Origin: Okeania sp. KiyG1
GTDB taxonomy: Bacteria; Cyanobacteriota; Cyanobacteriia; Cyanobacteriales; Microcoleaceae
Length of the DNA: 64,000 nucleotides
Direction: 5' to 3'
Assembly: GCF_014132355.1 (NCBI RefSeq)
Contig: NZ_BLZO01000058.1
Coordinates: forward strand, 62,001-126,000
Made by a program: the position numbers and the translations under genes. Within the stretch, counting starts at the first letter, position 1; every line of letters starts with the position of its first letter. Positions 16,445 through 43,210 of this stretch are shown piece by piece. The notes under the pieces were generated by a model, which saw only the letters and a list, made by a program, of their open reading frames with translations, was not told the DNA's origin and made no database searches.

Positions 16445-18484
16445 CTACCAATTAAATTTCATCCCCAAAAATGTTTCTAAACGCTGATTATGAGGTTGAA
16501 AATAATCATTTAATTTTTGTCGAAGTGACTCACTAATAGAAGAATAAGAACCAGCATTTAATTTTGGATAATCTGATATTTGATAATCTGGCAAACCTAG
16601 AAAGTCGAAAACTTGCTTCATGGTAGTTGCCGAGTCACGATAAAAGTCTTCACTTTTCAAAATTAGTAATTGTTCTCTAGGAAAAATAGCTAACCATTTC
16701 TTGAGGAATTCTACATATACGCCAGAAGCAATATAATCTCCTGCAAAATTCCAATAATTAGGATGAGAAATTTTGCTGAGTTTTTCAAGTTGAGAGTTAA
16801 TAGCTACTTCACAAGAACGAAATTCTTTATTTAAACGTACTTGATGATAGTAATGAGAAATTGCTCGATCGACAGGATTTCTCATAATGAGAATTAGTTT
16901 GGTTTTGGGAAAAAAATGAAAGATTCTACAGGGAGCATATTGAGCATCAAAATAGGTAGTGCTTGCTTCTCCGGTTAGAAATTTTTTTGACTCTGAAATG
17001 GGAGGGAAATGTGCCCGATACCAATCTATACCTCTATGGAAATTGAAAGACCAAAAATGTATTTCTTTTTTGATGGCTGGTAAGACTTGGGGATGTTTAG
17101 TTATATAGCTATAAAGAGAGGTGGTTCCTCCTTTGCCTACTCCAATAATTAGAAAGTTGGCTTCAGATAATTTTTCTGAATTCCAGTGTTGGTTAACAAA
17201 GGTGGGATGGGTTTTATCAATATAATGTTTAGAGGCTATTTGATAATATTTTATTGCCTGATTAATTCTGTCTACTTGAGTTAAAGCTTCTGCTAAATTT
17301 AGGTAAGTGGAAACTGAATTATTTTGATTTTCAATCAGTTTATGAAATAAATTTACTGTCTCCTCAAGTTTGCCTAATTTTTCAAAAGTTTCCCAGAGAC
17401 GAGTATCAGACCACCAAGCAAAATCAGGATTAATTTCTATGGCACGATGATAGGCAATAGAAGCTTCTAACCATTTTTGTTGTTGGGTTAAAACTAATCC
17501 TAGATAATAGTAAGATTGACTATCTTGATTAGTTTCCACAGCAGCATAATATGAGTTTAAATCTTGTTCTAGTTTAATTTTTTGCCGTAATATTTTCTCT
17601 AATTCCTGAAGGATATCTATTTGATATTTACTAGGGAATATTTCTCGCAACATATAATAGATAATGATAGCTCCAGAAATCTGATTTGCTTGTGCTAAAG
17701 CTGTTCCTAATTTTAAGTATAGTTCTGGATTTTCTCTGATGAGACATAGTGCTTTTTGATAAATAGGATATTGGTCTGGATTTTTAATAGCTTGACAATA
17801 ATAATTGATAGTTTCATCTAAATTTGATTGAGAAAATTGGGCAAAAGCATCTCCTAACTGTAGGTGCATCCAAGGTAAATCCGGTCTAACTTGAGCAACC
17901 TCCAAATAAGTAGCGATCGCTTCATCTAATTTTTTTTGTTTAAGTAAAACATCTCCCAGACATTGACGATACCAAACTACTTCTGGATTTAGTTTTATTG
18001 CTTGACGATATGCTATTTCTGCTGCTTCTAGTTTGCCAATTTGAAAGAGAATATCTGCTAATTTTTGATGAGTACCTTTAAGTTCTGGTTTGAGTTGAAT
18101 TGCTGTTTGATAAGAAAGAATGGCTTGCTCAAATTCTCCAACATTAACCAGTGCTTCTCCTAATTTATTGTAATCCCAATAACTATCAGGATTAATTTTA
18201 AGAATTTGACGGTAAGCAAGGACAGCTTCTGAATATTTTTCTAGTTTAATTAGGGCATTTCCTAAGTTATGGTAAGACCATGGAAAGTCAGGGTTTAGTT
18301 TGATAGTTTGACGGTAAGCTGTAATAGCTTCATCCCATTTTTGTAGTTTAGTCAAAGCTTGCCCTAATTTATAGTAAGACCAAGAAAAATTTGGGTTGAG
18401 CTTTATTGCTTTATGGTAGGCATTAACGGCTTTATCCCACTGTTGTTGTTCGAGAAATTTTTCTCCTAATTCGTAGTCATCCAT
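16445..18484 (-). CDS. TPR-sulfotransferase fusion protein 1
   Basis: Encodes 679 aa with no signal peptide. Roughly residues 1-430 are 34-residue TPR units (e.g. WDEAITAYRQTIKLNPDF), followed by a sulfotransferase domain. KGGTTSL near 453 is the 5'-phosphosulfate loop for PAPS and RNPVDRAISHY near 533 is the 3'-phosphate-binding motif with its serine. FPREQLLILKSEDF near 605 and the FDFLGLP tail are typical of Sulfotransfer_1 proteins. Predicted to transfer sulfate from PAPS to a glycan or protein, with the TPR part binding the substrate or a partner. First of three paralogs. Substrate unknown. Confidence 0.9.
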   Translation of the reverse strand: MDDYELGEKFLEQQQWDKAVNAYHKAIKLNPNFSWSYYKLGQALTKLQKWDEAITAYRQTIKLNPDFPWSYHNLGNALIKLEKYSEAVLAYRQILKINPDSYWDYNKLGEALVNVGEFEQAILSYQTAIQLKPELKGTHQKLADILFQIGKLEAAEIAYRQAIKLNPEVVWYRQCLGDVLLKQKKLDEAIATYLEVAQVRPDLPWMHLQLGDAFAQFSQSNLDETINYYCQAIKNPDQYPIYQKALCLIRENPELYLKLGTALAQANQISGAIIIYYMLREIFPSKYQIDILQELEKILRQKIKLEQDLNSYYAAVETNQDSQSYYYLGLVLTQQQKWLEASIAYHRAIEINPDFAWWSDTRLWETFEKLGKLEETVNLFHKLIENQNNSVSTYLNLAEALTQVDRINQAIKYYQIASKHYIDKTHPTFVNQHWNSEKLSEANFLIIGVGKGGTTSLYSYITKHPQVLPAIKKEIHFWSFNFHRGIDWYRAHFPPISESKKFLTGEASTTYFDAQYAPCRIFHFFPKTKLILIMRNPVDRAISHYYHQVRLNKEFRSCEVAINSQLEKLSKISHPNYWNFAGDYIASGVYVEFLKKWLAIFPREQLLILKSEDFYRDSATTMKQVFDFLGLPDYQISDYPKLNAGSYSSISESLRQKLNDYFQPHNQRLETFLGMKFNW

Positions 18485-18640
18485 CTCAAATTTTCCAATT
18501 AAATGTCATATATAAGTCTGATTCTAGTTTGTGATTAAGCACCTAAGCAAAATTATTGACTTACTATGATTCTATATAATGTTTACAATCTAAGGAACTT
18601 AGTCTTAAAAAATGTGTAATTAATTTGTGTACCTGCTTAT

Positions 18641-20120
18641 GAGGTGGAAAGAAATCTCTCAATTTTTGCTGAAGTAATTTCTTGATAGATGGATAAAACC
18701 TTCAGTTAAATTTCTGGTAGTCGGGAATTCGATAGTTGAGCAAATTGAGAAAATCAAATAATCATTTCATCTTCCGTTTTCCCGGTTAAATGTAATCTGT
18801 AAGTCTGATTCTAATTTTTGATGATGAGGTGGAAAGAAATCTCTCAATTTTTGCTGAAGTAATTTCTTGATAGATGGATAAAACCTTCAGTTAAATTTCT
18901 GGTAGTCGGGAATTCGATAGTTGAGCAAATTGAGAAAATCAAATAATCATTTCATCTTCCGTTTTCCCGGTTAAATGTAATCTGTAAGTCTGATTCTAAT
19001 TTTTGATGATGAGGTGGAAAGAAATCTCTCAATTTTTGCTGAAGTAATTTCTTGATAGATGGATAAAACCTTCAGTTAAATTTCTGGTAGTCGGGAATTC
19101 GATAGTTGAGCAAATTGAGAAAATCAAATAATCATTTCATCTTCCGTTTTCCCAGTTAAATGTAATCTGTAAGTCTGATTCTAATTTTTGATGATGAGGT
19201 GGAAAGAAATCTCTCAATTTTTGCTGAAGTAATTTCTTGATAGATGGATAAAACCTTCAGTTAAATTTCTGGTAGTCGGGAATTCGATAGTTGAGCAAAT
19301 TGAGAAAATCAAATAATCATTTCATCTTCCGTTTTCCCGGTTAAATGTAATCTGTAAGTCTGATTCTAATTTTTGATGATGAGGTGGAAAGAAATCTCTC
19401 AATTTTTGCTGAAGTAATTTCTTGATAGGTGGATAAGACTCTACGTTGAATTTTTGGTGGTGGGGAATTTGATAGTTGAGCAAATTGAGAAAATCAAATA
19501 ATCATTTCATCTTCCGTTTTCCCGGTTAAATGTAATCTGTAAGTCTGATTCTAATTTTTGATGATGAGGTGGAAAGAAATCTCTCAATTTTTGCTGAAGT
19601 AATTTCTTGATAGGTGGATAAGACTCTACGTTGAATTTTTGGTGGTGGGGAATTTGATAGTTGAGCAAATTGAGAAAATCAAATAATCATTTCATCTTCC
19701 GTTTTCCCGGTTAAATGTAATCTGTAAGTCTGATTCTAATTTTTGATGATGAGGTGGAAAGAAATCTCTCAATTTTTGCTGAAGTAATTTCTTGATAGGT
19801 GGATAAGACTCTACGTTGAATTTTTGGTGGTGGGGAATTTGATAGTTGAGCAAATTGAGAAAATCAAATAATCATTTCATCTTCCGTTTTCCCGGTTAAA
19901 TGTAATCTGTAAGTCTGATTCTAATTTTTGATGATGAGGTGGAAAGAAATCTCTCAATTTTTGCTGAAGTAATTTCTTGATAGGTGGATAAGACTCTACG
20001 TTGAATTTTTGGTGGTGGGGAATTTGATAGTTGGGGAAATTGAGAAAATAAAAGACTCCTTTCACTATAGTTGTGGAAGAAATTAAGAGCTTTATGGCAC
20101 TGCTTTTCTCGAAATTTTTC
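18641..20120 (-). repeat. 185-bp tandem array of decayed sulfotransferase 3' ends
   Basis: Eight units start (at GAGGTGG) at 18641, 18826, 19011, 19196, 19381, 19566, 19751 and 19936, exactly 185 bp apart. On the minus strand each encodes a relic of the sulfotransferase C-terminus (e.g. MKGVFYFLNFPNYQIP...QKLESDLQI). Since 185 is not a multiple of 3, units do not read through each other. Units 1-4 share one variant (GATAGATGGATAAAACCTTC) and units 5-8 another (GATAGGTGGATAAGACTCTA), so they spread by two rounds of local amplification or conversion. Most units lack an open frame. Confidence 0.95.
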
Positions 20121-21000
20121 TCCTAACTTTTAGTCATCCATCTCCAGTTTCCCAGTTAAATCTCATCTCTAAGTCTGATTCTAATTTAGGAATTTCAGCT
20201 TGATAGAAATCTCTAAATTTTTGAGGCAATAATTTCCTAATAAGTGGATAGGAGCATAAGTTAAATTTTTGGTAGTGGGGAATTTGATGGTTGGGGAAAT
20301 TTAAAAAATCAAAGACTCCTTTCATCTTCCAGTTTCTCAGTTAAATTTCATATCTAAGTCTGATTCTAACTGAGGAATTTCAGCTTGAAAGAAATCTCTA
20401 AATTTTTGAGGTAGTAATTTCTTGATAGATGAATAAAAGTTTCAGTTAAATTTCTGGTAGTTGGAAATTTGATAGTTTGCCAAATTGAGAAAATCAAAGA
20501 CTCCTTTCATCTGGTGTTGTAGGAAAAATTAAGACCTTCAGTTAAATTTCTATAGTTGTGGGAGAAATTAAGAGTTTCAATTTTTGAGGCAGTAATTTCC
20601 TGATAGATGAATAAAAGCTTCAGTTAAATTTCTGATAGTCGGAAATTTGATGGTTTAGCAAATTGAAAAAATCAAATACTCGTTTCATTATAGTTGTGGG
20701 ATCAATCAAGAACTTTACCCCAATATCTTTATCGAAATTTTTCTCCTAACTTTTAGTTATCCATCTCTAAATATGATTCTAATTGAGTAATTTCAGCTAG
20801 AAAAAAATCTCTCAGTTTTTGAGGCAGTAATTTCTTGATAGATGAATAAAAGTTTCAGTTAAATTTCTGGTAGTTGGAAATTTGATAGTTGGGCAAATTG
20901 AGAAAATAAAAGACTCCTTTCACCATAGTTGTGGGAGAAATTAATAACTTCAACCCACTGTTTTTCTCAAAATCTTTCTCCTAACTTTTAATCGTCCACC
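20121..21000 (-). pseudogene. More diverged sulfotransferase C-terminal relics (3-4 units)
   Basis: 20134-20325 still reads as 63 codons of the sulfotransferase tail (VFDFLNFPNHQIPHYQKF). About 20326-20520, 20521-20700 (partial) and 20700-20940 are more degenerate copies, recognisable by the repeated block GTTAAATTTCTGGTAGTTGG and by CAAAGACTCCTTTCAT. Spacing is irregular here, in contrast to the exact 185-bp array beside it. They continue directly into the intact gene at 21001, so the array grew from a sulfotransferase 3' end. Confidence 0.85.
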
Positions 21001-23247
21001 TCAAATTTCCCAATTAAATTTCCTACCTAAATACTCCTCTAATTTTTGATTATGAGGTCGAAAAAAATTAGTCAATTTTTGATGCAGCGATTTACTGATA
21101 GGGGGATAGGAACCTAAATTTAATTTCTGGTAGTCGGGAACTTTATAATTTGGCAGACCGAGAAAATCAAATACTCGTTTCATCATGGTTTTTGGAGTTC
21201 GATAAAGTTCTTCTGTCGGCAAAATTAGAAATTGTTCTTGAGGAAATATTCTCATCCAATTGTGGATAAAATTTATGTATATGCTAGTGCCTAAATAATA
21301 TAATCCATGATGCCAATAATTGGTATCTAAGGGAGAATTTTTATAAATCATTTGCCATTTTTCTAATTCTTGATTTAATGCTGTTTCTAAAGGGCGATTT
21401 TCTGTATTTATCCTTCGCCAATAATAGTAGTGAGAAATAGCTCTATCTACAGGGTTTCTCAACATAATGATTAATTTGATTTTGGGAAAATAATTAAATA
21501 TTCTGTCTGGCGCTTCCGAATTTCTTAAATAACTAGGACTTGCTTCTCCAGTGATTAAATTTTCATGGTTTGGAATAGCAGGAAAATGAGAGAGATACCA
21601 ATTTATTCCTTTATCAAAGTTCATGGACCAAAAATTTATTTCTTTCACAACAGAAGGTAAAACTTGAGGATGTTGGATGAGATAACTAAATAAAGAGGTA
21701 GTTCCTCCTTTTCCCACTCCAATAATTAGAAAGTTAGGACTTTGAATGTCTGTCAAATTCCACTGTTTTTGGCAAAGGGAGGGGTAAGATTTTAAAGTTT
21801 GTTGGTAACAAGCAGTTTGGTAACAAATAATTGCTTCATCTATTTGATTCTGTTTTGTCAGAATTTCTCCGAGATTTATATAGGACAAAAATGAATCTGG
21901 ATTTTGTTGAATAAACTGTCGGTATAAATTGACTACTTCATCTAATTTTCCGCAACGCTCTAAAGTGCGCCATAAATTATAATTTGACCAGGATAATTCA
22001 GGGTTAAGTTCTACAGCGCGCAGATAAACTATAGCAGCTTCATCCCACTTTTGTTGTTGAATAAAAGCATCTCCTAAAAATTGATAAATTTCAGAAATAT
22101 TAGGTTGAATTGAAATAGCTTTTTGATAAGAGGTGATGGCTTCATCTAATCTTTGTTGTTTTACTAGGGTATTTCCTAGGTAATTCCATAGCCAATAGTT
22201 ATGAGGATTTTTTTCAATTTCTTGGCGGTAGATTTTTTCTGCTTTTTCCCATTTATCTTGTTTGAGAAATAATTTCCATAAACATAAATGAGGTCTATCT
22301 ATTTCTGGATTAAGTTCTATTGCTTTTAAGTAACTGATAATTGCTTGGTCTGATTTTCCTGTGGTTTCTAGAACGTCTCCTAATGAATTATAAGACCAAT
22401 AATATTTAGAATTAATTTCTATGGCACGACGGTATGCTGTTATTGCTTCTTCCCAATTTTCTAATTTTAGTAAAGCATCTCCTAATGAGTTATGAGACCA
22501 ATAAGAATTTGGATTAATTTTGATGGCTTGATGATATTTGGTAATGGCTTCTGTTTCTTTTTGTTGTCTGAATAAAACTTCTCCTAAATTATGGTGAGCA
22601 GAGTAAATATTGGGATTGATTTCTATGGCTTTTTGCAAAGTTGTCTCAGCTTGGTCTAATTTACCTAATTTAATTAAGGTTTCTCCTAATTTATTGTGAG
22701 ACCAGTAGGAATTAGGATTAATTTTGATGGCTTTTTGGTAGGCAGTTACTGCTTCATGTAAATTATCTTGTTGAGTCAGTGCTTCTCCTAATTTTTCATA
22801 AGACAAATAAAATTCAGGATTCAATTTAATTGCCTGTCTAAATGCTGTGGCAGCTAAATCCCATTTTGATAGTTGAATAAAGCTCTCTCCCAGTTTCTGA
22901 TATGACCAAGAAAAATCAGGGTTAAGTTCTATAGCACGTTGATATGCTGTGATAGCTTTTTCCCACTGTTGAAGTTGCATTAAAGCTTCTCCTAATTTGT
23001 GATGAAACCAGGGGAAATTAGGATTAAGTTGAATGGCATTTTGGTAAATAGTAATAGCTTGTGAAAAATTTCCTTGTTGCAGGTAAATATCTCCCAATTT
23101 TTTGTGAATTCCCCACTGTTCCGGTTGAAGTTCTAGAATTTTTTCATAACAGGTGATCGCTGATTCTATTTTGCCTTGGGATAAATAAGTTTCTGCCTGT
23201 TTTTGGTTTTGTAATACTATTGTTTGTAAGTCTGTATTTGAAGACAT
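21001..23247 (-). CDS. TPR-sulfotransferase fusion protein 2
   Basis: Encodes 748 aa. About 13-14 TPR units span residues 1-480 (PNSYWSHNKLGETLIKLGKL and similar), followed by a sulfotransferase domain with KGGTTSL near 510, RNPVDRAISHYYY near 597, FPQEQFLILPTEEL and a FDFLGLPNYKVP tail. PAPS-dependent transfer to an unknown acceptor is predicted. The ATG at 23247 gives MSSNTDLQTIVLQNQKQAETYLSQGK, whose TPR-capping start matches the paralogs. Located between the decayed 3'-end array and a repeat-rich spacer. Same strand as all other TPR enzymes in the locus. Confidence 0.92.
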   Translation of the reverse strand: MSSNTDLQTIVLQNQKQAETYLSQGKIESAITCYEKILELQPEQWGIHKKLGDIYLQQGNFSQAITIYQNAIQLNPNFPWFHHKLGEALMQLQQWEKAITAYQRAIELNPDFSWSYQKLGESFIQLSKWDLAATAFRQAIKLNPEFYLSYEKLGEALTQQDNLHEAVTAYQKAIKINPNSYWSHNKLGETLIKLGKLDQAETTLQKAIEINPNIYSAHHNLGEVLFRQQKETEAITKYHQAIKINPNSYWSHNSLGDALLKLENWEEAITAYRRAIEINSKYYWSYNSLGDVLETTGKSDQAIISYLKAIELNPEIDRPHLCLWKLFLKQDKWEKAEKIYRQEIEKNPHNYWLWNYLGNTLVKQQRLDEAITSYQKAISIQPNISEIYQFLGDAFIQQQKWDEAAIVYLRAVELNPELSWSNYNLWRTLERCGKLDEVVNLYRQFIQQNPDSFLSYINLGEILTKQNQIDEAIICYQTACYQQTLKSYPSLCQKQWNLTDIQSPNFLIIGVGKGGTTSLFSYLIQHPQVLPSVVKEINFWSMNFDKGINWYLSHFPAIPNHENLITGEASPSYLRNSEAPDRIFNYFPKIKLIIMLRNPVDRAISHYYYWRRINTENRPLETALNQELEKWQMIYKNSPLDTNYWHHGLYYLGTSIYINFIHNWMRIFPQEQFLILPTEELYRTPKTMMKRVFDFLGLPNYKVPDYQKLNLGSYPPISKSLHQKLTNFFRPHNQKLEEYLGRKFNWEI

Positions 23248-24218: not shown

Positions 24219-26369
24219 TCAATTCCAGTTAAATTTTATGCCAAGATACTCTTCTAATTTTTGGTTATGAGGTTGAAAGAATTCAGAAAGTTGATGACGT
24301 AGACTAGCATTGATTGGAGGATAAGAACCAGGGTAATAATTTTTATATTCTAAGAGTTGATAATTTGGTAAACCTAGAAAATCAAAAACTTGTTTGGTTG
24401 TTGCTTCAGGATTTTCATACATATCCCCACTTTTCAAGATTAAAAGTTGTTCTCTAGGAAATATATTCACCCATTCTTGAATAAAAGATAGATATAAACC
24501 TAAACCTAAATACCTGGTTTTTTTTCCTTGCAAAAAATTAGCATTGCCTTGAGATTGATTAATTATTTTTTGTAATATTTTTGTTTCGACAGCAACTACT
24601 TCTGCAAAACTTCTTTGTTCTTGTCCGAGTCGTTTATCCATATAGTAGTGAGAGACAGCTCGCTCTATAGGATTTCTTAATATAGCGATTAATTTTATTT
24701 TGGGAAAATAACTAAATAGTTTATTTGCTGCTTCTACAGAATACATATAGTTAGGAGTTGCTTCTCCTGTGGCAAAATTTTGTTGTTCTGGAATTGCCGG
24801 AAACTGAGATAAATACCAATCAATTCCCTTATGAAAGTTAGCATCAAAAAAGTGCATCTCTTTTTCGACGGCGGGTAAAATTGAGGGATGTTTAGTCAGA
24901 TAGAAGTAAAGAGATGAAGTACCCCCTTTAATTGTGCCAATAATGATAAAGTTTGGTTTTCCTAATTTAGTAAATTCACCATATTTACTGATAAATGCTG
25001 GATGAGTTTTGGAGATTTTTATAGATAAAACTTTTTGATAATAACTGCTAGCTTCTTTAGCTTTACCTTGTTTGGTCAGAATATTAGCTAAATTCAAATA
25101 ATGCCCATCAAATTCTGGCTTAATCTTCATAGCTTCTTGGTAACAGTTAATCAACTTATCTAATTGCTTTTGGTTTAATTTAACTAGCTGATAACTGTGA
25201 ATAGATCTGAGCTGATTATAAGCAAGGAAAAAATCAGGTTGCAATTCAATAGCTTTAATAAAATAAGCGATCGCTTCCTCTGAATTCCCTTTTTCTAAAA
25301 GAGCGTCTCCTAAATCTTTATTAACCCAAGGTAAATCTGATCTTAAATCTCTAGCTTTTTGATAATAAGTAATGGCTTCATCTATGAATCCTTGTTTGTG
25401 CATTACATAACCTAACTGATAATAATACCAGTAAGCATTGGCATTTATTTCCAGGGCGCTTTTATAAGCGATCGCCACTTCATCCCATTTTTTGATTTTG
25501 AGTAATACTTCCCATAAATTATGATAGTACCAATAATTTTCAGGGTTAATATCTATAGATTTTTGATAGGCAATAATAGCCTCATCCCATCTTTTTAATT
25601 GAGTTAAAGATTTCCCTAAATTTTGATGATAATTTGATACTTGGTGGTTGAGTTTAATCGCATTTTCGTAAGCAATTACAGCTTTCTCCCATTGTTTTAG
25701 TTCTAGTAAAGCATTACCTAAGTTGTTATATAAATCGCTAGAGTTAGGATTATTTTCAATGGCACGTTGATAAAATTTTACAGCTTCATTCCACTGTTTT
25801 AGTTGCATCAAAGCTTCTGCAAGCTTGCGGTCGGACCAGGTAAAATCTGGTTTTAATTCTATGAATTTATAATAAGTATTTACAGCTTCATTCCACTGTT
25901 TTAGTTGCATCAAAACTTCTGCAAGTTTGTGATAAGACCAAGGGAAATCTGGTTTTAACTCTATAACTTTACGGAAAGCATTAGTAGCTTCATCCCACTG
26001 TTTTAACTCCATCAATGCCGTGCCTAATTTTTGGTAAGGCCAGGGAAATTTTGGATTAATTTTTATAGCGTTGCGGTAACTGACTATTGCTAAATTCCAC
26101 TGTTTTTTTTGAGAATATAGATTGGCTAAATTTAAATGAGCTTGACCAAAATTGGGATTAATTACGATGGCTTTTTGATAATATTCTTGAGCTAACTCTT
26201 GGTTGCCCATTGCTTCGACTATTTTGCCTTTTGTATTACAAACTAAGGCTAAATATTCTAGTTTTTTGAGGGCTTCATTACAGATTTTATCGGCCTGATT
26301 TAATTTTCCTTGAGCTAAGTAGGATTCTGCTTTTTGGTTTAAATCTACTACTGATGTTTTTTGATTCAC
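24219..26369 (-). CDS. TPR-sulfotransferase fusion protein 3
   Basis: Encodes about 716 aa from GTG 26369. The frame stays open to 26543, but those 58 extra codons are translated dispersed-repeat DNA (the GAGCGAGGAGGTAGGAG and CTGCCCAACTATG segments recur near 51200 and 51430), so the shorter start, giving NQKTSVVDLNQKAESYLAQG, is preferred. TPR units occupy about residues 1-440. The sulfotransferase domain has KGGTSSL near 481, RNPIERAVSHYY near 568, FPREQLLILKSGDM and FDFLGLPNYQL. PAPS-dependent transferase; acceptor unknown. It differs from the other two in carrying TSS instead of TTS in the PAPS loop. Confidence 0.88.
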   Translation of the reverse strand: MNQKTSVVDLNQKAESYLAQGKLNQADKICNEALKKLEYLALVCNTKGKIVEAMGNQELAQEYYQKAIVINPNFGQAHLNLANLYSQKKQWNLAIVSYRNAIKINPKFPWPYQKLGTALMELKQWDEATNAFRKVIELKPDFPWSYHKLAEVLMQLKQWNEAVNTYYKFIELKPDFTWSDRKLAEALMQLKQWNEAVKFYQRAIENNPNSSDLYNNLGNALLELKQWEKAVIAYENAIKLNHQVSNYHQNLGKSLTQLKRWDEAIIAYQKSIDINPENYWYYHNLWEVLLKIKKWDEVAIAYKSALEINANAYWYYYQLGYVMHKQGFIDEAITYYQKARDLRSDLPWVNKDLGDALLEKGNSEEAIAYFIKAIELQPDFFLAYNQLRSIHSYQLVKLNQKQLDKLINCYQEAMKIKPEFDGHYLNLANILTKQGKAKEASSYYQKVLSIKISKTHPAFISKYGEFTKLGKPNFIIIGTIKGGTSSLYFYLTKHPSILPAVEKEMHFFDANFHKGIDWYLSQFPAIPEQQNFATGEATPNYMYSVEAANKLFSYFPKIKLIAILRNPIERAVSHYYMDKRLGQEQRSFAEVVAVETKILQKIINQSQGNANFLQGKKTRYLGLGLYLSFIQEWVNIFPREQLLILKSGDMYENPEATTKQVFDFLGLPNYQLLEYKNYYPGSYPPINASLRHQLSEFFQPHNQKLEEYLGIKFNWN

Positions 26370-26577
26370 TGTTTTTTGATTGTAATAGCAGTTTGATAAA
26401 TGTTTGCTACGAATCTCTTTTACCGAATAATTAATAATTAGAGTTTGCGTATGGAAAGTCTTTTTACTGGGGTAGGAGACAGGAGAAAAGGCTCGGGAGC
26501 GAGGAGGTAGGAGCAAGAATTTTCCCAAGATTGTTCTGCCCAACTATGCGCCTAAAATATTAACTTTTTGAGGGTTT

Positions 26578-28974: not shown

Positions 28975-29043
28975 TTTATTTAATCTTTTAAAGTCGCTAA
29001 TTTTCATTAATATCGGCTTATTCAACTAAATTCCTGGAAATGC

Positions 29044-32401: not shown

Positions 32402-35164
32402 CTAAATTACTTTTGCTAATTTCAGAATTTTTCGTAGCTTCTTTATATCCACAAGAATATCTGGTTTCCATGATTGTTTATCTGAGTTGTCATCCTCAAA
32501 ATTTTCACCTATTAAATAGTAATGTGAAAGATGATATAAACTACTAATTTTCCAATATATAGGATTAATATATTTAGGAGAAAAAATTTCAATTATTTTA
32601 GTTCCTAAACTACAAAACACTAAGTTTGTTAGCCCAGCACCATGAGGCGCTACAATGACTTTAACTTTTGCCATCAATGCAGCTTGCTCTGCTATAGAAA
32701 ATGATTCTAGAGTCAAGCTAATAAAACCAAAGTTTTCCAATAAACTGACTACTTCATCCTCATTCAAAATTCTCCGCCATGAGGCTAATTTTCTACTAAT
32801 AAATATTCGTTCTGGCGACTCTGATAATTTCCCGATATTCTCTGAGTTTAAAAATAGATTCCTGATAAATCCACAACCCCATTTAGAAACTCTGATGCCA
32901 CTTTGTTTAATTGTGAATGATGGTACTATTAATTTATTCGCTTTTATATGAGGAATAAATCTACTTTCAATAATTTTTTCTTGAGGAATTTCTAGTGCTT
33001 CTAGTGTTTCTTGATGAAATTTTTTATCGCACTTGCTGAATACAAATTTATCTATCTTTGATATCCAGCCACTTCGACGTAACAAATCCATTCTGACCAC
33101 TACATCAAACATCCAATGATAATATACATTTCCTCCCCATTTTGCAGATAAAAATGCTACGGTACCATCTATATAGTGAATGGGTGGTAATTTGGCAGAA
33201 GATATAATCACCTCTGCACAACCTGTAGAAATATCTCTTACTAACTTATTGTCTGAAGTAATAACTGCAGTTGTGCCTAAATCAACACAACCTCTTCCTT
33301 CTGGAACCATAGTAACAAATGCTGTACCTGAGTTCACTTTTGTAACTCGGAAACAATGATGTACATTTTCATCTATTGTTTGAGTTGGTGAGAGATTTAT
33401 TGAAGTATTTGAATAGATATTTACCAGAGTAGTATTTGAGCTTGGAGAGTCTGAAGTAATTTGCCAATTTCCTGTTAAATTGAAAAACTTTTCTAGCCAG
33501 TCTTCTGGTAATTTTTCTTGAGTTCTCCACAATTTACCTGCTGCTTGGCGACCTTGTTTTTTGAGGATATATCCTATTTTTTTATGAACATCATGATAAT
33601 CTGGTCTTATTTTCAAAGCTTCAATTAAACATGGTATGGCTTCAGACCAATTCTGCTTTTGAATATAGGCATTTCCTAATTCTCCATAATACCAACAAGA
33701 TTTGGGATTAATTTCGATTGCTTTTTGGTAGGAAGCGATGGCTTCATCTAATAATCCTTTTTGTTGTAAAGCGTCTCCCAATTTTCTGTGAAATAAATGA
33801 TTATTTGCTTTTAACTCTATAGCACGACGGTAAGCAATTATTGCTTCATCCCATCGTTTAGTTTTTTCTAGTACTGTACCGCAGCTATAGTTTAACCAAG
33901 AAAAGTTTGGATTAATTTCGATTGCTTTTTGGTAAGAAGTGATGGCTTCATCTAATAATCCTTTTTGTTGTAAAATATCTCCTAATTTTCTGTGAAATAA
34001 ATTATTATCTGGCTCTAACTCTATGGCACTACGGTAAGTAGTAATTGCTTCATCCCACTCTTGAATTTTTGCTAATATTTCTCCTAATTTGCTGTACCAT
34101 TTTATCTCCTTTGGTTCTATTTCTATTAACTTTCGATAACAACTGATAGCTTGAGTATCCTGACTTAATTTTTGTAGATTATATCCTAATTTAGAATAAG
34201 GCCAAGTTAAATTTGGATTTATTTTTACTACCTGCTGACATAAGTTGATGGCGGTTTTTAATTTTCCTTGTTGTTCTAGAATATTGGTTAATTTGTAGTA
34301 GATGTTCCAGGCATCATATTTAACTTCTATAGCCTTTTGATAATATTTTTCGGCTACATTTAATTCTCCTTTTTTTTGTAGAATATCCCCCAAGTTATTA
34401 TAAGACCAAGGAAAATTTGGATTAATTTCTGTAGTTAGATGAAAGCTATTAATTGCTGCATCTATATCTCCTATTTCTTGAAATATTTTTCCTAGTTTAT
34501 GGTGAGCTACCCACAAATTAGGTTGAATTTGAATTGCTGTTTGATAATAATTTATTGCTGTAGTTAACTTTCCTTGTTTAGCAACAGCGTCGCCTAAATT
34601 TTGATAAGCACTTACCAAATATGGATTTAATTTTATAGCTTTCTGGAAATGAGCGATCGCTGATTCTATTTCCTCATTTTCTAGCAAATTTTTTCCCTGT
34701 TTTAAATATTCTGAGGCTTGAGGATATTGAGCTTCTAAACTTAATGCTTGTTCCTGACAATCTCTAGCTAATTCTATTTTTCCTATCTGTTGCCAGATTT
34801 TTCCTAAGTTCCGATAAAAACCTGGTACATTTGGTTTGATTCCGATGGCTTCTTGGTAAGATTTTATTGCTAATGGCCATTGTTTTTCTTGGGCATATAA
34901 ACTCCCTAAGTTAGCATGAACTTCCGCCCATTCTGACTGTCGATTTATTGCTTTGAGATACCATTCTTTTGCTTTGTCTATTTCTCCCATTTTGTGGAAA
35001 ATATTTCCCAATGTTTTATAGATAGGTAGAAAATCTGGCACTATTTCTAATGCTTGATTCCCAGCTAATATTGCCTCTTCTAATTTTCCTTGGGCTAAAT
35101 ATATTTCTGCTTTTTGAGATAAATTTGTTAGATTTATTTGTTTGTTCATCTTGAACTTAGTCAT
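32402..35164 (-). CDS. TPR-glycosyltransferase family 61 (DUF563) fusion protein 2
   Basis: Encodes 920 aa, starting MTKFKMNKQINLTNLSQKAE, nearly identical over its first 160 residues to fusion 1. The TPR region is two units shorter. The GT61 domain has YYHWMFD, FISRKLASWRRILNEDEV and APHGAGLTNLVF near 841. Expected to transfer a sugar to a TPR-recruited acceptor, as for its paralog. The downstream (3') flank duplicates that of the third copy, showing the gene-plus-spacer unit was copied as a block. Confidence 0.92.
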   Translation of the reverse strand: MTKFKMNKQINLTNLSQKAEIYLAQGKLEEAILAGNQALEIVPDFLPIYKTLGNIFHKMGEIDKAKEWYLKAINRQSEWAEVHANLGSLYAQEKQWPLAIKSYQEAIGIKPNVPGFYRNLGKIWQQIGKIELARDCQEQALSLEAQYPQASEYLKQGKNLLENEEIESAIAHFQKAIKLNPYLVSAYQNLGDAVAKQGKLTTAINYYQTAIQIQPNLWVAHHKLGKIFQEIGDIDAAINSFHLTTEINPNFPWSYNNLGDILQKKGELNVAEKYYQKAIEVKYDAWNIYYKLTNILEQQGKLKTAINLCQQVVKINPNLTWPYSKLGYNLQKLSQDTQAISCYRKLIEIEPKEIKWYSKLGEILAKIQEWDEAITTYRSAIELEPDNNLFHRKLGDILQQKGLLDEAITSYQKAIEINPNFSWLNYSCGTVLEKTKRWDEAIIAYRRAIELKANNHLFHRKLGDALQQKGLLDEAIASYQKAIEINPKSCWYYGELGNAYIQKQNWSEAIPCLIEALKIRPDYHDVHKKIGYILKKQGRQAAGKLWRTQEKLPEDWLEKFFNLTGNWQITSDSPSSNTTLVNIYSNTSINLSPTQTIDENVHHCFRVTKVNSGTAFVTMVPEGRGCVDLGTTAVITSDNKLVRDISTGCAEVIISSAKLPPIHYIDGTVAFLSAKWGGNVYYHWMFDVVVRMDLLRRSGWISKIDKFVFSKCDKKFHQETLEALEIPQEKIIESRFIPHIKANKLIVPSFTIKQSGIRVSKWGCGFIRNLFLNSENIGKLSESPERIFISRKLASWRRILNEDEVVSLLENFGFISLTLESFSIAEQAALMAKVKVIVAPHGAGLTNLVFCSLGTKIIEIFSPKYINPIYWKISSLYHLSHYYLIGENFEDDNSDKQSWKPDILVDIKKLRKILKLAKVI

Positions 35165-35418: not shown

Positions 35419-35513
35419 GTTAGAACTTATGCTGATGATGAACTTGAGACAGAGAAATGCTTTTTCTACTGTTCCCTATTCCCTGTTCCCTGTTCCCTGT
35501 TCCCTGTTCCCTG

Positions 35514-37962
35514 CTATATTACTTTTGCTAATTCCATAATTTTTAATAGCTGTTTTAAATTGACAATTATATCTGGCATCCATAACTGTTTTCCTAAATT
35601 ATCATTATCAAAAGAATCCCCTAATAGATAATAATATGAAAGACTACAAAAATTACTAATCCGCCAATATAAAGAATTAACATACTTAGGAGAAAAAAAT
35701 TCAATTACTTTAGTTCCTGGACTACAAAATACGAGGTTTGTTAATCCAGCTCCATGAGGTGCAATAACAACTTTAGCAGCCGCCATATATGATACTTGTT
35801 CTGCTATTGACATTGATTCTAAGGTCAGACTAACAAAGCCAAATTTCTCTAACAAATTCATAACTTCCTCTTCATTAACAACTCTACGCCATGATGCTAG
35901 CTTTCTACTAAGATATATACGTTTTGGTTGATGAGATACTTCGTGAATATTTTGAGGTTTCAAAAATAAACTTCTGAGAAATTCACAACTCCATTTATTC
36001 ACCCATATTCCTCCTTGCTTCGCTGCAAGTGAAGGCACTATTAATTGCTTTGCTTTTATGTGAGGATACAATCTACTTTCGATTATTTTATCTTGGGAAA
36101 TTCCTAATGCTTCTAAACTTTCTTTCTGAAATTTTTTTTCGCAACTACTAAAAATAAACTTATCTATCTTAATATCTGTTCGGCGTAATAAATCTATCCG
36201 TGCCACTACATCAAACATCCAGTGAAAATAATTTTTTTCTCCCCACTTTGCTGACAAAAAAGCTACATTTTCATTTATGTAGTAAATAGGAGGTAATTGG
36301 GAAGAGGACATAATTACTGTGGCAAAACCTGTAGAAACGTCTGAGACTAATTTATTATCTGAACTAATAACTGCTGTTGCTCCGAATTTTACACAACCTC
36401 TTCCTGCTGGTACTATTGCGACAAATGCTTCTGCTAATTTAATTTTTTTTTCTTTAAAACTGGGATGAAGTTTGCCAGTAATTGTTTGAGATGCTAAGAA
36501 ATTTACTGGCATTTCTGGATAGATTTTTATGTGAATAATATTACTTTCTAATGAACTAGATATAATTTCCCAGTCTCTTGTTAATTTAAAAATTTTTCGA
36601 GCCAATCTAGGGGTAATTTTTCTTCAAGAGACCAAATCCTAGCTGCATCTTGACGACCTTGTTTTCTGAGGATATATTTTATATTTTTATGCACTTCATC
36701 ATAACCTGGTCTCAATTTTAGAGCTTGGATTAAATAAGGTATTGCTTCAGAAAACTTTTGCTGTTGAACATAAGCATCTCCTAATGCTCCATAATGCCAA
36801 CAAGAATTTGGGCTAATTTCTATAGCTTTTTTATAACTAGCGATCGCTTCTTCTATCAAACCTTTTTTCTGTAAAACATCTCCTAATTTTTTGTGGAATA
36901 TATCTTTATTTGTGGCAAGTTTTAAGGCACTAGAATAAGCTAAAATTGCTTCGTCCCATTCTTGATTTTGTTGATAAATGTCTCCCATTAATTTATAAGG
37001 CCAAAATAACTTTTGATTTAGTTTTATAGCAACCTTACAAGCTGTAATTGCTTCTTTTAATTTTCCTTGCTTCAGCAGAATCTGATTTAATTTGTAGTGA
37101 ATATTCCAAGCATCTGGCTGAATTTCTATCGCTTTTTGATAATAGTGTCTTGCAGGGTCTAATTTTTTTGGTTTTCTAGAATTTCACCTAATTTTTTGTA
37201 AGGCAAAGGAGAATTTGGGTTGATTTTTATAGCAAGTTTAAATTCTATAATAGCTGTATCTAGCTCTCCTATTTCTTGAAATACTCTCCCTAGTTTATGA
37301 TGAGCTATAAATAAGTCTGGTTTCTGTTCTATTGCTTGTTTATAATATTTAATTGCTGGATGTAAGTCTTTTTTTTCAACTAAAGCATCCCCTAATTTTT
37401 GATAGGCATTTGCCAAAAATGGGTTGAATTTTATGGCTTGCTGGAAATGAGCGATCGCCTCTTCTATTTCCCCATTTTCTAGAAATTTTTTTCCCCGTTT
37501 TAAGTATTCTAAAGCTTGAGGATATTCAGCTTCTAAATTTAATGCTTGTTCCTGACAATCTTTGGCTAATTCTATTTTTCCTATTTGTTGCCAGATTTTT
37601 CCTAAATTACGATAAAAACCTGGTAAATTTGCTTTGATGCTGATGGCTTCTTGGTAAGATTTTATTGCTAATTGCCATTGTTTTTCTTGAGCATATAAAC
37701 TCCCTAAATTAGCATAAACTTCCGCCCATTCTGGCTGTTGATTTATTGCTTTGAGATACCATTCTTTTGCTTTGTCTATTTCTCCCATTTTGTGGAAAAT
37801 ATTTCCCAATATTTTATAGATAGGTGGAAAATTTTGCTCTATTTCTAATGCTTGGCTACAAGTTAATATTGCTTCTTCTAATTTTCCTTGAGTTAAATAT
37901 AATTCTGCTTTTTGATATAAATTTGTTAGATTTATTTGTTTGTTCATTTTGAGCTTAGTCAT
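35514..37962 (-). pseudogene. TPR-GT61 fusion protein 3, broken by two 1-nt frameshifts
   Basis: Three open pieces align end to end with the intact paralogs: 37159-37962 (N-terminal TPRs, MTKLKMNKQINLTNL), a middle TPR part ending at 36581 (open from 36988, with homology extending back to about 37170), and 35514-36605 (GT61 domain with NYFHWMFD, YLSRKLASWRRVVNEEEV, APHGAGLTNLVF). The first break is in an A7 run at about 37163-37169 (A8 would restore frame); the second is in GAAAAATTTTTAAATTAA near 36580-36597 (one extra T restores WLEKFFKLT). Both are one-base losses. The GT61 piece alone retains all recognisable motifs. Either a pseudogene or a sequence needing slippage. Confidence 0.85.
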
Positions 37963-39778: not shown

Positions 39779-39784
39779 TGTAGG
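39754..39784 (+). other. 3' hairpin of tnpB element (right-end/omega-RNA region)
   Basis: CCTACACTA, a 13-nt loop, then TAGTGTAGG: a perfect 9-bp stem containing the tnpB stop codon as the first triplet of its 3' arm. Both tnpB elements continue with a similar AGT...TCACA motif just outside. Confidence 0.65.
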
Positions 39785-40296: not shown

Positions 40297-41028
40297 ATGT
40301 CCCAAGCTTTTCTAACTCCAAAAGTAAGTGTAATTATCCCAGTATATAACTGCGAACTCTACATCGCCCAAGCAATAGAAAGTGTATTTAAGCAAACCTA
40401 TACTAACTATGAAATTATTGTTATAGACGACGGTTCCACAGATAATACCCATCAAGTATTACAACCATACATGACAAAAATTCGCTATTTTCATCAAGAG
40501 AATAAAGGATTATCTGCAACTCGTAACCGTGGCATTAAATTGGCAAAAGGAGAATTAATTGCTCTCCTTGATGCTGATGATTTATTTCTACCCTATAAAC
40601 TGACAGAACAAGTTGCTATTTTTGATGCTCAATCAAATATTGGTTTAGTACAAAGTGGGTGGCGAGTTGTGAATGAAAAAGGAGAAAGAATTCAAGATAT
40701 TGAACCTTGGCATAAATCTCCAGAGTTAGATTTAGTAAGTTGGTTAAAATGGAAAACTACTAATCCTAGCGGGATGATTTTTCGTAAAGAATGGTTAGAA
40801 AAAGTAGGTGGGTTTAATGAAAAATTACGCAGATTAGAAGATTTTGATATTGTCATTCGGTTAGCTTTAGCAGGTTGTCAATCCACTTGGTTTCCTAAAG
40901 TAGCTGTATGTTATCGTCAACATAGCAGTAATATGACACGAAATTTACTTGCTCAAACAGCAGTAGAAGAAAAAATTTTAGATGAATTTTTTCTAACACC
41001 AATCTTCCTCCAAAAATTCAACAATTAG
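40297..41028 (+). CDS. Family 2 glycosyltransferase, domain 1 of a probable three-domain protein
   Basis: Encodes 243 aa with a GT-A fold GT2 domain: VSVIIPVYNCELYI, IVIDDGSTDNT and ALLDADDLFL (DxD-like metal site), followed by the acceptor region (GGFNEKLRRLEDFDIVIRLAL). The frame stops just after LDEFF, at a T6 run near 40987-40992. One extra T lets it continue as SNTNLPPKIQQLEKELRYGS straight into the next GT2 domain, matching the linker of domain 3. So this is probably the first third of a split gene. GT2 enzymes transfer sugars from nucleotide donors; donor unknown. Confidence 0.88.
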   Translation: MSQAFLTPKVSVIIPVYNCELYIAQAIESVFKQTYTNYEIIVIDDGSTDNTHQVLQPYMTKIRYFHQENKGLSATRNRGIKLAKGELIALLDADDLFLPYKLTEQVAIFDAQSNIGLVQSGWRVVNEKGERIQDIEPWHKSPELDLVSWLKWKTTNPSGMIFRKEWLEKVGGFNEKLRRLEDFDIVIRLALAGCQSTWFPKVAVCYRQHSSNMTRNLLAQTAVEEKILDEFFLTPIFLQKFNN

Positions 41029-41099
41029 AAAAGGAATTACGCTACGGTTCCCTAATTTGGAATTGTTGGTGTTTATATAAGTCTAGCTACTTCGCTGAA

Positions 41100-41996
41100 A
41101 TGGCTGATTATTTATATAAGTCTTTAAAATTTTCCTCTTTTTCTGTTCTTAAAACTATCTGTAATTGGCTCTATTATTTTCAATATTATGCTGCTCTAGA
41201 AAACTATGATTTTAATTCTGTATTTTTGCATCAATTACCAGAATGGCAAAAATTAATCGCTAAAGTCATCCCTAATGGTTTACCACTGGTTAGTGTTATT
41301 ATTCCTACCTATAATAATGCCGATTATATTCTTACAGCTATTAAAAGTATCCTGACTCAAACTTATACCATTTATAAAATTATTGTTGTTGATGATGGTT
41401 CTACCGATAATACTAATCAAGTTTTAGAACCCTACCTAAATCAAATTAAATATGTATATCAAGAAAATCAAGGACCATCAAAAGCGCGGAATCATGGCAT
41501 AGAAATAGCTCAGGGAGAATATATTGCCTTTCTAGATGCCGATGACTTTTTTCTACCCGAAAAATTAGCCGAACAAGTAGGATGTTTTGCAGAAGATTCT
41601 ACTTTAACTATGGTGCAAAGTGGTTGGAGATTTGTTGATGAGGAAGGTAGTACTATTAAAGATGTAAAACCTTGGGAAAATGGTGCAGAATTAGACTTAG
41701 AAAATTGGTTAATCTGGCAAGCAACTTTGCCTAGTGCAATGATGTTTAGAAGTGAGTGGTTAAAGCTGAATGGAGGATTCGACCCGCGATATATTCCAGA
41801 GGATTTAGAAATAGTTTTGCGCTTGGCTTTAACTGGGGGAAAAGCTACTTGGTTACAGAGAGTTTGTGTTTGTTATCGACAGCATAATAGTAGTGTTTCT
41901 GGATTAGAAAACCGACAAAAAATTACTCAAGAATTAGAAAAATTATTAGATGATTTTTTAGGAAACCTAATTTACCAGCCTCAATACGTCAAATAG
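41100..41996 (+). CDS. Family 2 glycosyltransferase, domain 2 of a probable three-domain protein
   Basis: Encodes 298 aa: a helical linker of about 65 residues (MADYLYKSLKFSSFS...LPEWQKLI), then a GT2 domain with VSVIIPTYNNADYI, IVVDDGSTDNT and AFLDADDFFL. The linker is homologous to the C-terminal part of domain 3, showing that GT2-linker units were tandemly duplicated. The frame again fails in the LDDFF codons at a T6 run near 41954-41959; one extra T gives RKPNLPASIRQIENQVKYRS and runs into domain 3. The ATG at 41100 is internal to the inferred composite gene and lacks a good ribosome site. Confidence 0.85.
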   Translation: MADYLYKSLKFSSFSVLKTICNWLYYFQYYAALENYDFNSVFLHQLPEWQKLIAKVIPNGLPLVSVIIPTYNNADYILTAIKSILTQTYTIYKIIVVDDGSTDNTNQVLEPYLNQIKYVYQENQGPSKARNHGIEIAQGEYIAFLDADDFFLPEKLAEQVGCFAEDSTLTMVQSGWRFVDEEGSTIKDVKPWENGAELDLENWLIWQATLPSAMMFRSEWLKLNGGFDPRYIPEDLEIVLRLALTGGKATWLQRVCVCYRQHNSSVSGLENRQKITQELEKLLDDFLGNLIYQPQYVK

Positions 41997-42067
41997 AAAA
42001 TCAAGTAAAATATCGCTCCCTACTTTGGAATTCTTGGCGCTTATATCAGGCAGGTAACTTTTCCGAA

Positions 42068-43210
42068 ATGACTGGTTATTTGCAAAAATCTTTAACTTAT
42101 ACTTCCGCCTCTACTACAGAAGCAATTTATACTTGGATAGAATTATTTAGCAAACTTGCTCGTCAAGAAGGAAATAAATTTAATGCCTATAATTTTAGTC
42201 AATTACCAGAGTGGAAAAAATTAATTAGTAATATTTTTAATCCAGTAACACCAAGAGTCAGCGTAATTATTGCCACCTATAATAATGCCCACTATATATT
42301 AGAAGCGATCGCCAGCGTTTTTAATCAGACTTATACCTCTTATGAAATAATCGTAATTGATGATGGTTCTACGGATAATACTCGCGAAGTTTTAGAACCT
42401 TATTTAGATAAAATTCGCTATGTTTATCAAGAAAATAAAGGAGTATCCCACGCCCGAAATTTAGGTTTAGAAATGGCGGGGGGAGAATTTATTGCTTTTC
42501 TGGATGCTGATGACTTTTTTCTACCAGATAAATTGGCAAAACAGGTAGCTATTTTTGATACTCGCCCTTCTCTTGGTATTGTGCATAGTGGGTGGCGTTT
42601 AATTAATGAAAAAGGGGAGAAAATTTCCGATATAGAATTATGGCATGGCTCCCTAGAATTAGACTTAGAAACTTGGGTAGTTTGGAAACCTGTAACTATC
42701 TCTATGATGTTTCGTCGGAGTTGGATAAAAAGTGCAGGAGGTTTTGATACTCGTTGGCATCATGGAGAAGATATCGATTTAGTATTGCGTTTATCTGTAA
42801 ATGGTTGTGAGGCAGTTTGGTTGCCAAAAGTTACTTATTGTTATCGTCAACATCATCGGAATGCTACTAGAAAATCTACCCATCAAGCTGTTAGTATGAT
42901 GGCTGTTTTAGATAACTTTTTTAGCAGACCAAATTTATCAACATCTATTCGTAAATTAGAGGGAAAATCTCGTTATTATACTTTGAGTTGGTTAGCATGG
43001 CAGGCGCATCGAAATGAGAATTTAGTTGAGATGAGTAAATATCTACGACAAGCTGTAAAATATACTCCTTTATCGATGACAGAAACTATTTATCATTGGA
43101 TTGATAGTTTTAATAGTCTTTATCAACAATATGGTTATGAATTTGATGCTTATGATTTAACAAATTCAGATATTTGGCAACAGTTAATGTCAGATATTTT
43201 TGTGAAATAA
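42068..43210 (+). CDS. Family 2 glycosyltransferase, domain 3 of a probable three-domain protein
   Basis: Encodes 380 aa: linker (MTGYLQKSLTYTSAS), GT2 domain with VSVIIATYNNAHYI, IVIDDGSTDNT, AFLDADDFFL and GGFDTRWHHGEDIDLVLRLS, then a complete C-terminal helical linker (LDNFFSRPNLSTSIRKLEGK...DIWQQLMSDIF). Here the equivalent TTTTTT stays in frame because of the preceding C. This unbroken linker is the template for recognising the two frameshifts upstream. It probably acts with the neighbouring TPR-GT61 and sulfotransferases on a common glycan; that is inference from clustering. Confidence 0.88.
   Translation: MTGYLQKSLTYTSASTTEAIYTWIELFSKLARQEGNKFNAYNFSQLPEWKKLISNIFNPVTPRVSVIIATYNNAHYILEAIASVFNQTYTSYEIIVIDDGSTDNTREVLEPYLDKIRYVYQENKGVSHARNLGLEMAGGEFIAFLDADDFFLPDKLAKQVAIFDTRPSLGIVHSGWRLINEKGEKISDIELWHGSLELDLETWVVWKPVTISMMFRRSWIKSAGGFDTRWHHGEDIDLVLRLSVNGCEAVWLPKVTYCYRQHHRNATRKSTHQAVSMMAVLDNFFSRPNLSTSIRKLEGKSRYYTLSWLAWQAHRNENLVEMSKYLRQAVKYTPLSMTETIYHWIDSFNSLYQQYGYEFDAYDLTNSDIWQQLMSDIFVK

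What the first reader, a model, noticed from the sequence alone, without database searches (positions are those of the whole stretch)
16445..43210. A locus of TPR-armed modifying enzymes with exchangeable catalytic ends
Three TPR-sulfotransferases, one TPR-NodB deacetylase and three TPR-GT61 glycosyltransferases lie on one strand in a row, followed by three tandem GT2 domains. The same kind of N-terminal TPR module is joined to four chemically different ends if GT2 helical linkers are counted as analogous. The N-termini of the GT61 and deacetylase proteins are recognisably homologous (MNK..I.L.N/D.YQ.AELYL..GKLE). This suggests shuffling of catalytic domains onto a shared docking module, giving a cytoplasmic set of enzymes that act on one recruited acceptor. 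TPR + glycosyltransferase recalls O-GlcNAc transferase, but in GT61 instead of GT41. A sulfated, deacetylated surface glycan or glycoprotein is my inference.
Basis: partly seen in the sequence, partly recalled or inferred. Interest (0 to 1): 0.75.

Follow-up and report, generated by a model that had tools for sequence, protein, structure and literature searches.

The report
Enzymes with swappable heads and tails
In a marine filamentous cyanobacterium, a row of sugar-modifying enzymes shares related repeat-built front ends, and comparison with close relatives shows that these front ends have been recombined with, and copied between, different catalytic ends, including one gene whose sulfotransferase end appears to have been replaced by a deacetylase end.

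Summary
The row of TPR-fused enzymes is real: three sulfotransferases (ST), one NodB/CE4 deacetylase, two intact GT61 glycosyltransferases and a third with a broken frame, all on the minus strand. The GT2s differ: plus strand, behind a TnpB gene, no TPR, one gene in relatives and frame-broken here. The genome groups with Okeania; the locus recurs in all five same-genus genomes held and in Trichodesmium-group genomes.

The shuffling idea holds in a narrower form. The TPR-NodB gene is a mosaic: its first ~600 nt match a TPR-sulfotransferase gene that sits here in relatives (91-95%), the rest matches one relative's TPR-NodB; the crossover lies among near-identical TPR units. That sulfotransferase end was not found in this assembly. 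In another genome an ST carries a GT61-type head. Two GT61 paralogs here share heads (93% identical at four-fold sites) but not tails (50%). Otherwise heads and tails mostly descend together (66 of 70 genes unflagged).

Catalytic ends resemble heparan-sulfate sulfotransferases, chitin/peptidoglycan deacetylases and GT61. A sister class of TPR-GT61 genes follows RTX surface-protein genes in 13 of 45 GT61-bearing stretches, suggesting such proteins as acceptors; the window has none. Function is inferred. The crossover needs long-read confirmation.

The parts
16445..18484 (-). TPR-sulfotransferase 'ST1' (679 aa; lacks the shared N-terminal head module)
   Evidence: head score 13 bits; clade ST1
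18593..20933 (-). array of twelve 185-bp-type units resembling the 3' end of ST2, several with in-frame stops; not a gene
   Evidence: kindred arrays in G002, G003, G004, remnants in G001, G005, G017
21001..23247 (-). TPR-sulfotransferase 'ST2' (748 aa)
24219..26543 (-). TPR-sulfotransferase 'ST3'; the true start is probably near 26354 (inference), head module 26049-26354
   Evidence: nearest solved structures heparan sulfate 3-OST and NDST
27038..28966 (-). mosaic TPR-NodB/CE4 deacetylase
28376..28990 (-). 5' head of the TPR-NodB gene, matching the 'STa' sulfotransferase gene of relatives (94.6% to G005 over 591 sites of 28400-28990; 92.2% G002, 91.2% G003)
   Evidence: best crossover 28385/28376, uncertain within about 28690-28376
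27038..28376 (-). TPR body and NodB end, matching the TPR-NodB gene of G001 (96.3% over 27750-28350, 92.5% over 27041-27640)
29044..32007 (-). TPR-GT61 'a' (987 aa); head module 31669-31980
32402..35164 (-). TPR-GT61 'b' (920 aa); head module 34826-35137, 97% identical to that of GT61a
35514..37962 (-). TPR-GT61 'c', reading frame broken at about 37.17 kb and 36.59 kb
40297..43210 (+). three-GT2-domain gene, divergent conserved neighbour, frame broken at two places; no TPR

Best explanation
This is a conserved glycan-modification locus of Okeania and Trichodesmium-group cyanobacteria made of soluble, probably cytoplasmic proteins, each a TPR arm carrying one catalytic end. Shown by sequence: the N-terminal ~100-200 residues are one homologous head module, found on GT61, many sulfotransferase, NodB and GT41 proteins and on TPR-only proteins; this head and the 102-nt TPR units recombine and convert, so that heads have come to sit on other tails (sulfotransferase head on NodB here, GT61-type head on a sulfotransferase in G022) and are kept alike among paralogs whose tails have diverged. 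Inferred: the head recruits a common partner or acceptor, the tails add, deacetylate and sulfate sugars on it before export, and swapping tails changes the chemistry while keeping the address. The best candidate acceptors, by conserved gene order of the sister GT61 class, are RTX calcium-binding surface proteins of the oscillin type.
For: Head homology: (14 places in the own genome score 107-167 bits, the next 87; 8 of the 14 are the seeds themselves). Mosaic NodB: max chi-square 303 at 400 informative sites inside the TPR region against at most 23 in 2000 shuffles; the own NodB head sits with three STa heads (100/98). STa end not found in G000 and G001 (best matches 60 and 61%). NodB subfamily: of 389 genomes searched only G000 and G001 show it in a TPR-sized frame (642, 624 aa); the 28 next best places (43-51% identity) have frames of 213-316 aa and no other listed match exceeds 454 aa (listing capped); in the 12 neighbourhoods read its frame holds no TPR. 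GT61-type head on an ST in G022: 79% of 43 four-fold sites to the neighbouring GT61 head, 34% of 32 to a head of its own ST clade (two ordinary heads of that clade: 62% of 47), tail 81% of 67 to its own clade. GT61a/b here: 93% of 57 four-fold sites in heads, 50% of 72 in tails, so copying and not protein constraint. No 19-residue Kyte-Doolittle mean over 1.6 in ten window proteins (maximum 1.56). RTX gene upstream on the same strand in 13 of 45 stretches with GT61, against an RTX gene in 1 of 45 without; order RTX-GT61-GT61-ST in five of them.
Against: 66 of 70 genes show no foreign head (which pooled all window-type GT61s, so it could not see exchange among them), and enzyme labels are strongly clustered on the head tree (11 changes against 28.8 shuffled): exchange is occasional. 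One of four AU tests did not reject a clade (GT61 B heads, p 0.087). The crossover in the window lies among near-identical TPR units (28317-28643), where an assembly can join wrong pieces; I could not see reads, and the assembly is rated 92% complete, so a missing STa could be unassembled. Frames of the TPR-NodB start, GT61c and GT2 are broken here, so some may be dead. Not every arm has the head (14 of 45 ST rows score 13-46, ST1 among them). No RTX gene lies in the window, and 13 of the 26 GT61s on the RTX side of the tree lack an RTX gene in the stretch read. The second GT61s of the RTX loci fall on the window's side of the tree, but a common clade with window-type GT61s is only 'not rejected' (AU p 0.24). 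No acceptor, activity or location was tested. NodB and ST3 co-occur in the same two of six Okeania, which may be one event.
Confidence: 0.6

Rival explanations
1. Ordinary tandem duplication and gene conversion among repetitive genes, without functional meaning: TPR units recombine because they are alike, and the head is no docking module.
For: The crossover lies among tandem 102-nt TPR units; the neighbourhood shows other repeat expansion and conversion, including the 3'-end array and an ST3-like 3' end on the G001 785-aa ST; most heads descend with their tails.
Against: The same head module occurs on unrelated ends outside the locus (GT41 in C104 and C28), and a NodB type that is free-standing in the other places read was joined to a TPR arm.
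Confidence: 0.3
2. The mosaic TPR-NodB gene is an assembly error at TPR repeats; the living cell has both an STa and a TPR-NodB gene.
For: Crossover among 96%-identical repeats; frame breaks nearby at T/A runs hint at imperfect sequence; completeness 92%.
Against: The STa catalytic end was found nowhere in the 11 Mb assembly, nor in G001, which also has TPR-NodB. The G022 head and the GT61a/b heads are not plain copies of the other genes seen, since they differ at 21% and 7% of four-fold sites, so exchange does not rest on this gene alone.
Confidence: 0.15
3. A bacterial counterpart of the N-deacetylase/N-sulfotransferase step: NodB frees the amine of N-acetylhexosamine and the adjacent ST3 sulfates it (works like NDST or NodB/NodH).
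For: ST3 is nearest to heparan sulfate 3-OST (2.5e-24) and NDST (2.1e-22) among solved structures; NodB to chitin-deacetylase-like and peptidoglycan deacetylases; the two genes are neighbours in both genomes that have TPR-NodB, and ST3 was not seen in the locus stretches read of the other four Okeania, which lack TPR-NodB.
Against: The other ST clades were not compared with solved structures, so the similarity to NDST is not shown to be specific; an ST3-type gene also stands at C11 without NodB in the stretch read; one lineage only; the G005 locus is cut by its contig end.
Confidence: 0.2

Closest known systems
TPR-sulfotransferases and TPR-GT61 (DUF563) proteins of cyanobacteria (recalled as common architectures; the GT61 family is in 52 and the sulfotransferase family in 58 of 60 genomes searched, own included, with or without TPR)
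   Same: same two-part architecture, often in neighbouring genes
   Different: here a lineage-specific TPR-NodB member and head/tail exchanges are documented
O-GlcNAc transferase and bacterial GT41 proteins
   Same: TPR arm plus glycosyltransferase end; two GT41 proteins of this genome carry the same head module
   Different: catalytic ends here are GT61, sulfotransferase and CE4, not GT41
Heparan sulfate sulfotransferases (3-OST, NDST)
   Same: the ST3 end aligns through the PAPS-binding loop and the Glu before HFFD (roles recalled)
   Different: TPR head, bacterial, deacetylase on a separate protein, substrate unknown
synechan (xss) cluster of Synechocystis (PMC8205485, passages seen)
   Same: cyanobacterial glycan genes with two sulfotransferases among glycosyltransferases
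   Different: Wzx/Wzy cluster; the word TPR does not occur in that main text
oscillin and other RTX surface proteins (PMC3034196, passages seen)
   Same: RTX genes precede the sister TPR-GT61 class; oscillin is described as highly glycosylated
   Different: no enzyme for that glycan is named in the passages seen; no RTX gene in the window

Membership tests
Sulfotransfer_1 (PF00685), PAPS-dependent | profile match over the curated cut-off | tested here: met
   three proteins, 76.3, 62.4 and 62.7 bits against 22
Sulfotransfer_1 (PF00685), PAPS-dependent | PAPS loop and catalytic Glu aligned with heparan sulfate sulfotransferases | tested here: met
   alignment of ST3 with 3-OST-3A1 (ST3 only); role of these residues is recalled
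CE4 / NodB deacetylase | profile match and the motifs TYDDGP, HSxSHP, RPPFG, LMHD | tested here: met
   95.6 bits against 23.1; motifs visible; motif meaning recalled
GT61 | Glyco_transf_61 profile match | tested here: met
   106.1, 96.1, 111.5 bits against 27; nearest solved chains POMGNT2, E 1e-4, for GT61b
O-GlcNAc transferase (GT41) | GT41 catalytic domain | tested here: not met
   catalytic matches of the window proteins are PF00685, PF01522 and PF04577; no GT41 match among the families shown (best 25 per protein)
NDST | deacetylase and sulfotransferase in one polypeptide acting on heparosan | tested here: not met
   separate genes; substrate not testable
Shared acceptor-docking head | heads of different enzymes bind one partner | not testable with these tools
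   only homology and conversion of heads shown

The most novel reading that the evidence does not exclude
A cytoplasmic glycan-writing kit with an exchangeable tool: homologous TPR heads act as one address tag for surface (RTX, oscillin-like) proteins, are kept uniform by gene conversion, and recombination at TPR repeats swaps the catalytic tool, so that a lineage changes the decoration of its filament surface (sulfated to deacetylated sugars) in one crossover.
Probability: 0.2. Interest if true: 0.85.

Novelty: new variant of a known kind. Interest (0 to 1): 0.6.

Why it matters
It gives a concrete example in bacteria of a repeat-built targeting half kept in place while the enzyme half is exchanged between chemically unrelated classes, and it offers a testable link between TPR-glycosyltransferases, sulfotransferases and the poorly understood glycoproteins of gliding filamentous cyanobacteria.

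Tried and rejected
GT2 frames as TPR-like arms: rejected. TPR-X at C11 (589-aa frame with an N-terminal head and a non-TPR end): no Pfam family at E 0.001, no credible solved chain, no relative among the loci fetched by then; its end remains unknown; a NodZ-like fucosyltransferase was a thought from recall only. 185-bp array as a cassette store: not pursued; several units hold stops and successive units shift frame, so I treat it as tandem duplication of a gene end. Structure prediction of TPR-NodB and TPR-GT61: both jobs failed, the tool was then off. Literature: searches in the held open-access library listed no paper that I recognised, from titles, starts of abstracts and word counts, as describing tail exchange on TPR-sulfotransferase, TPR-NodB or TPR-GT61 proteins; only the listed part of each result was seen. 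A term search of PMC10864358 found neither CE4 nor NodB, so the thought that the NDST deacetylase domain is CE4-like is recalled and unsupported here.

Limits of the counts: AU tests used groups named after seeing the tree; four were run, three reject, one (GT61 B heads) does not. In one search the G001 785-aa ST formed a group of one, so its STa-like head had no same-group comparator, and all window-type GT61s were pooled. Loci were picked by their GT61, ST, NodB or TPR hits, and RTX genes by a repeat pattern of mine, so the RTX count is over related, non-independent stretches (about seven settings), some cut by contig or stretch ends. The G003 GT61 (body like GT61a, end in the GT61b clade) was not tested formally. 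Two notebook figures are superseded: 66 genes (70) and about 11 array units (12).
Full report
What is there. The window is part of an 11 Mb genome in 198 contigs. Six unbroken TPR-fused enzyme genes lie on the minus strand between 16.4 and 35.2 kb: three sulfotransferases (ST1, ST2, ST3 from low to high coordinate), one NodB/CE4 deacetylase (with an uncertain start) and two GT61 enzymes; a third GT61 (35.5-38.0 kb) is broken into three frames. The three GT2 frames at 40.3-43.2 kb are on the other strand behind a TnpB gene, have no TPR, and align with one multi-domain gene in G001, G002 and G003, with two frame breaks here. TPR arms with glycan enzymes are a habit of this genome: GT41 (C28, C104), GT2, GT92, TOD1/MUCI70, weak GT9 and a PNP_UDP_1 domain also accompany TPR arrays.

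Whose genome. A search of named genomes with the ST1 end found 95-97% identical loci in five Okeania records and then Trichodesmium at 80% and below. Contig lengths tie G001 to Okeania sp. SIO3B5, G002 to SIO2B3, G003 to O. hirsuta PAB10Feb10-1, G004 to SIO2C9 and G005 to SIO1I7; G009 and G011 to Trichodesmium records. This is an inference from equal lengths. G017, G022, G029 and G032 share G011's genus code, hence 'Trichodesmium-group'.

The locus is conserved. In the stretches read, G001-G005 and G017 show GT61 genes followed on the same strand by ST genes, and a divergent gene with the same GT2-type N-terminal sequence lies beside the locus in G001, G002, G003, G004 and G017 (the G005 contig ends there). 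In G002-G005 and G017 the gene after the GT61s is a long ST that I call STa (frames of 864-913 aa), then ST2 and ST1. In G000 and G001 TPR-NodB and ST3 are present and STa is not; in G001 an ST of 785 aa stands before NodB. A second, paralogous locus (own C11; G001, G003, G009, G011, G012, G022) has further ST, GT61 and TPR-only genes.

One head on many tails. A profile built from nine GT61 heads (104 residues) scores 97 and 85 bits on the two NodB heads, 57-118 bits on 31 of 45 ST rows (one a truncated head), 92 and 86 on the two GT41 proteins and 113-124 on five TPR-only proteins and TPR-X of the second locus; the other 14 ST rows, ST1 among them, score 13-46, so not every arm has it. Best internal TPR windows of the 31 score 24-54. 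In the own genome 14 places score 107-167 bits with a profile of eight heads and the next 87; eight of the 14 are the seeds.

Direct evidence of exchange. (a) The window's TPR-NodB gene: in 90-nt windows from about 28953 to 28413 it is 87-99% identical to STa of G005, and from about 28368 to its end 87-99% identical to TPR-NodB of G001, while STa falls to 49-72% from 28323 on within the TPR part. Within the TPR region 400 sites distinguish the two parents: 95 STa-like and 10 NodB-like to the left of 28385/28376, 10 and 285 to the right; max chi-square 303 against at most 23 in 2000 shuffles; G002 and G003 as STa parent give the same point. G001 NodB itself is 88-94% like the window gene over about 28818-28413, where STa of G005 is 87-98% like it, so the middle TPR units had been shared before; the exact crossover is uncertain between about 28690 and 28376. 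The STa end was not found in G000 or G001: best matches 60 and 61%, which are ST1. (b) In G022 an ST whose end belongs to the clade I call B682 has a head that pairs with the neighbouring GT61 head (99/93) inside the GT61 B heads (99/95): 79% of 43 four-fold sites to the neighbouring GT61 head, 34% of 32 to a B682 head (two ordinary B682 heads: 62% of 47), while its tail is 81% of 67 to B682. (c) The G001 785-aa ST has an STa-like head (84-93% in 150-nt windows over its first 450 nt, one of them nearest to NodB of G001) on an end that groups with ST3 (99/98, long branch). (d) GT61a and GT61b of the window have ends of two different orthologous lineages but heads 94% identical in protein and 93% at 57 four-fold sites, against 61% and 50% (72 sites) in the ends; GT61a against its ortholog in G002 is the reverse, 78% of 45 sites in the head and 95% of 121 in the end. 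By 150-nt windows the two paralogs agree 89-99% at offsets 150-750 and 64-80% from 900 on. Copying, not protein constraint, explains this.

How general. A scan of 70 genes in 150-nt windows flagged four: the three of (a-c) and one short stretch in a G009 ST; it pooled window-type GT61s, so (d) was outside its reach, and the G001 ST was a group of one. On the head tree enzyme type needs 11 changes against 28.8 in shuffles: exchange is real but occasional. AU tests reject single clades for GT61 A+B heads, STa heads and B682 heads (p 0.0009, 0.002, 0.004) but not for GT61 B heads alone (p 0.087), with groups named after the tree was seen.

What the tails may do. ST3 aligns best with heparan sulfate 3-O-sulfotransferases and with NDST, NodB with chitin-deacetylase-like and peptidoglycan deacetylases with its motifs in place, GT61b weakly with POMGNT2. 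The highest 19-residue hydropathy mean in ten window proteins is 1.56, consistent with soluble proteins; no signal-peptide or membrane program was run.

A candidate acceptor. Of 90 stretches examined, 45 hold a GT61 match; in 13 of these an RTX-type calcium-binding protein frame lies upstream on the same strand, including two places of the own genome (L048:2788-3690, L049:105-1247); of the 45 without GT61, one has an RTX frame. All 13 GT61s are on one side of the GT61 tree (26 rows, 13 of them without RTX in the stretch read), the window's on the other (split 98/84). In five loci of two genera the order is RTX-GT61-GT61-ST, and the second GT61 lies on the window's side of the tree; a common clade of these with the window-type GT61s is not found but not rejected (p 0.24). 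RTX proteins of filamentous cyanobacteria include oscillin, described as highly glycosylated (passages of PMC3034196). The acceptor of the window's enzymes is therefore a guess by kinship: no RTX frame was found in the window.

Verdict. A real, conserved locus of known enzyme families, in which head and tail exchange is demonstrated; the docking idea and the chemistry remain inference. The main weak points are the possibility of a local assembly error at the window's crossover and the frame breaks in this genome.

Noticed in passing
window 18593-20933: Twelve 185-bp-type units resembling the 3' end of ST2, some 99% alike, with similar arrays in G002-G004 and remnants in G001, G005 and G017.
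   Followed up: partly
G000:C11:109086-110852 (L009/L010): TPR head like that of TPR-only genes of relatives, joined to an end with no family match; a further frame lies just downstream.
   Followed up: partly
L011:11510-14426 (G000:C88): Whole and 5'-shortened sulfotransferase frames in a row, with an RTX gene some kilobases away.
   Followed up: no
L048, L049, L107, L109, L111, L117, L193, L194, L197, L200-L203: RTX protein gene upstream of a TPR-GT61 gene on the same strand, in five loci followed by a second TPR-GT61 and a TPR-sulfotransferase.
   Followed up: partly
window 4209-4454: HEARO RNA match just over its gathering score (83.2 against 83 bits).
   Followed up: no
window 14409-15638, 38531-39778, 44683-45402: TnpB/IS605 OrfB genes in and around the locus; a gene that looks alike by eye lies between ST1 and ST2 in G005.
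   Followed up: no
window 28.9, 36.6, 37.2, 41.0, 42.0 kb: Several frame breaks relative to relatives, mostly at T/A-rich runs; the one at 37.2 kb seems shared with G004. Sequence error or real decay cannot be told apart.
   Followed up: partly
window 7958-8462; 48120-48788; many 7-bp arrays: Longer tandem repeats (about 64 and 86 bp) and very many heptanucleotide arrays.
   Followed up: no
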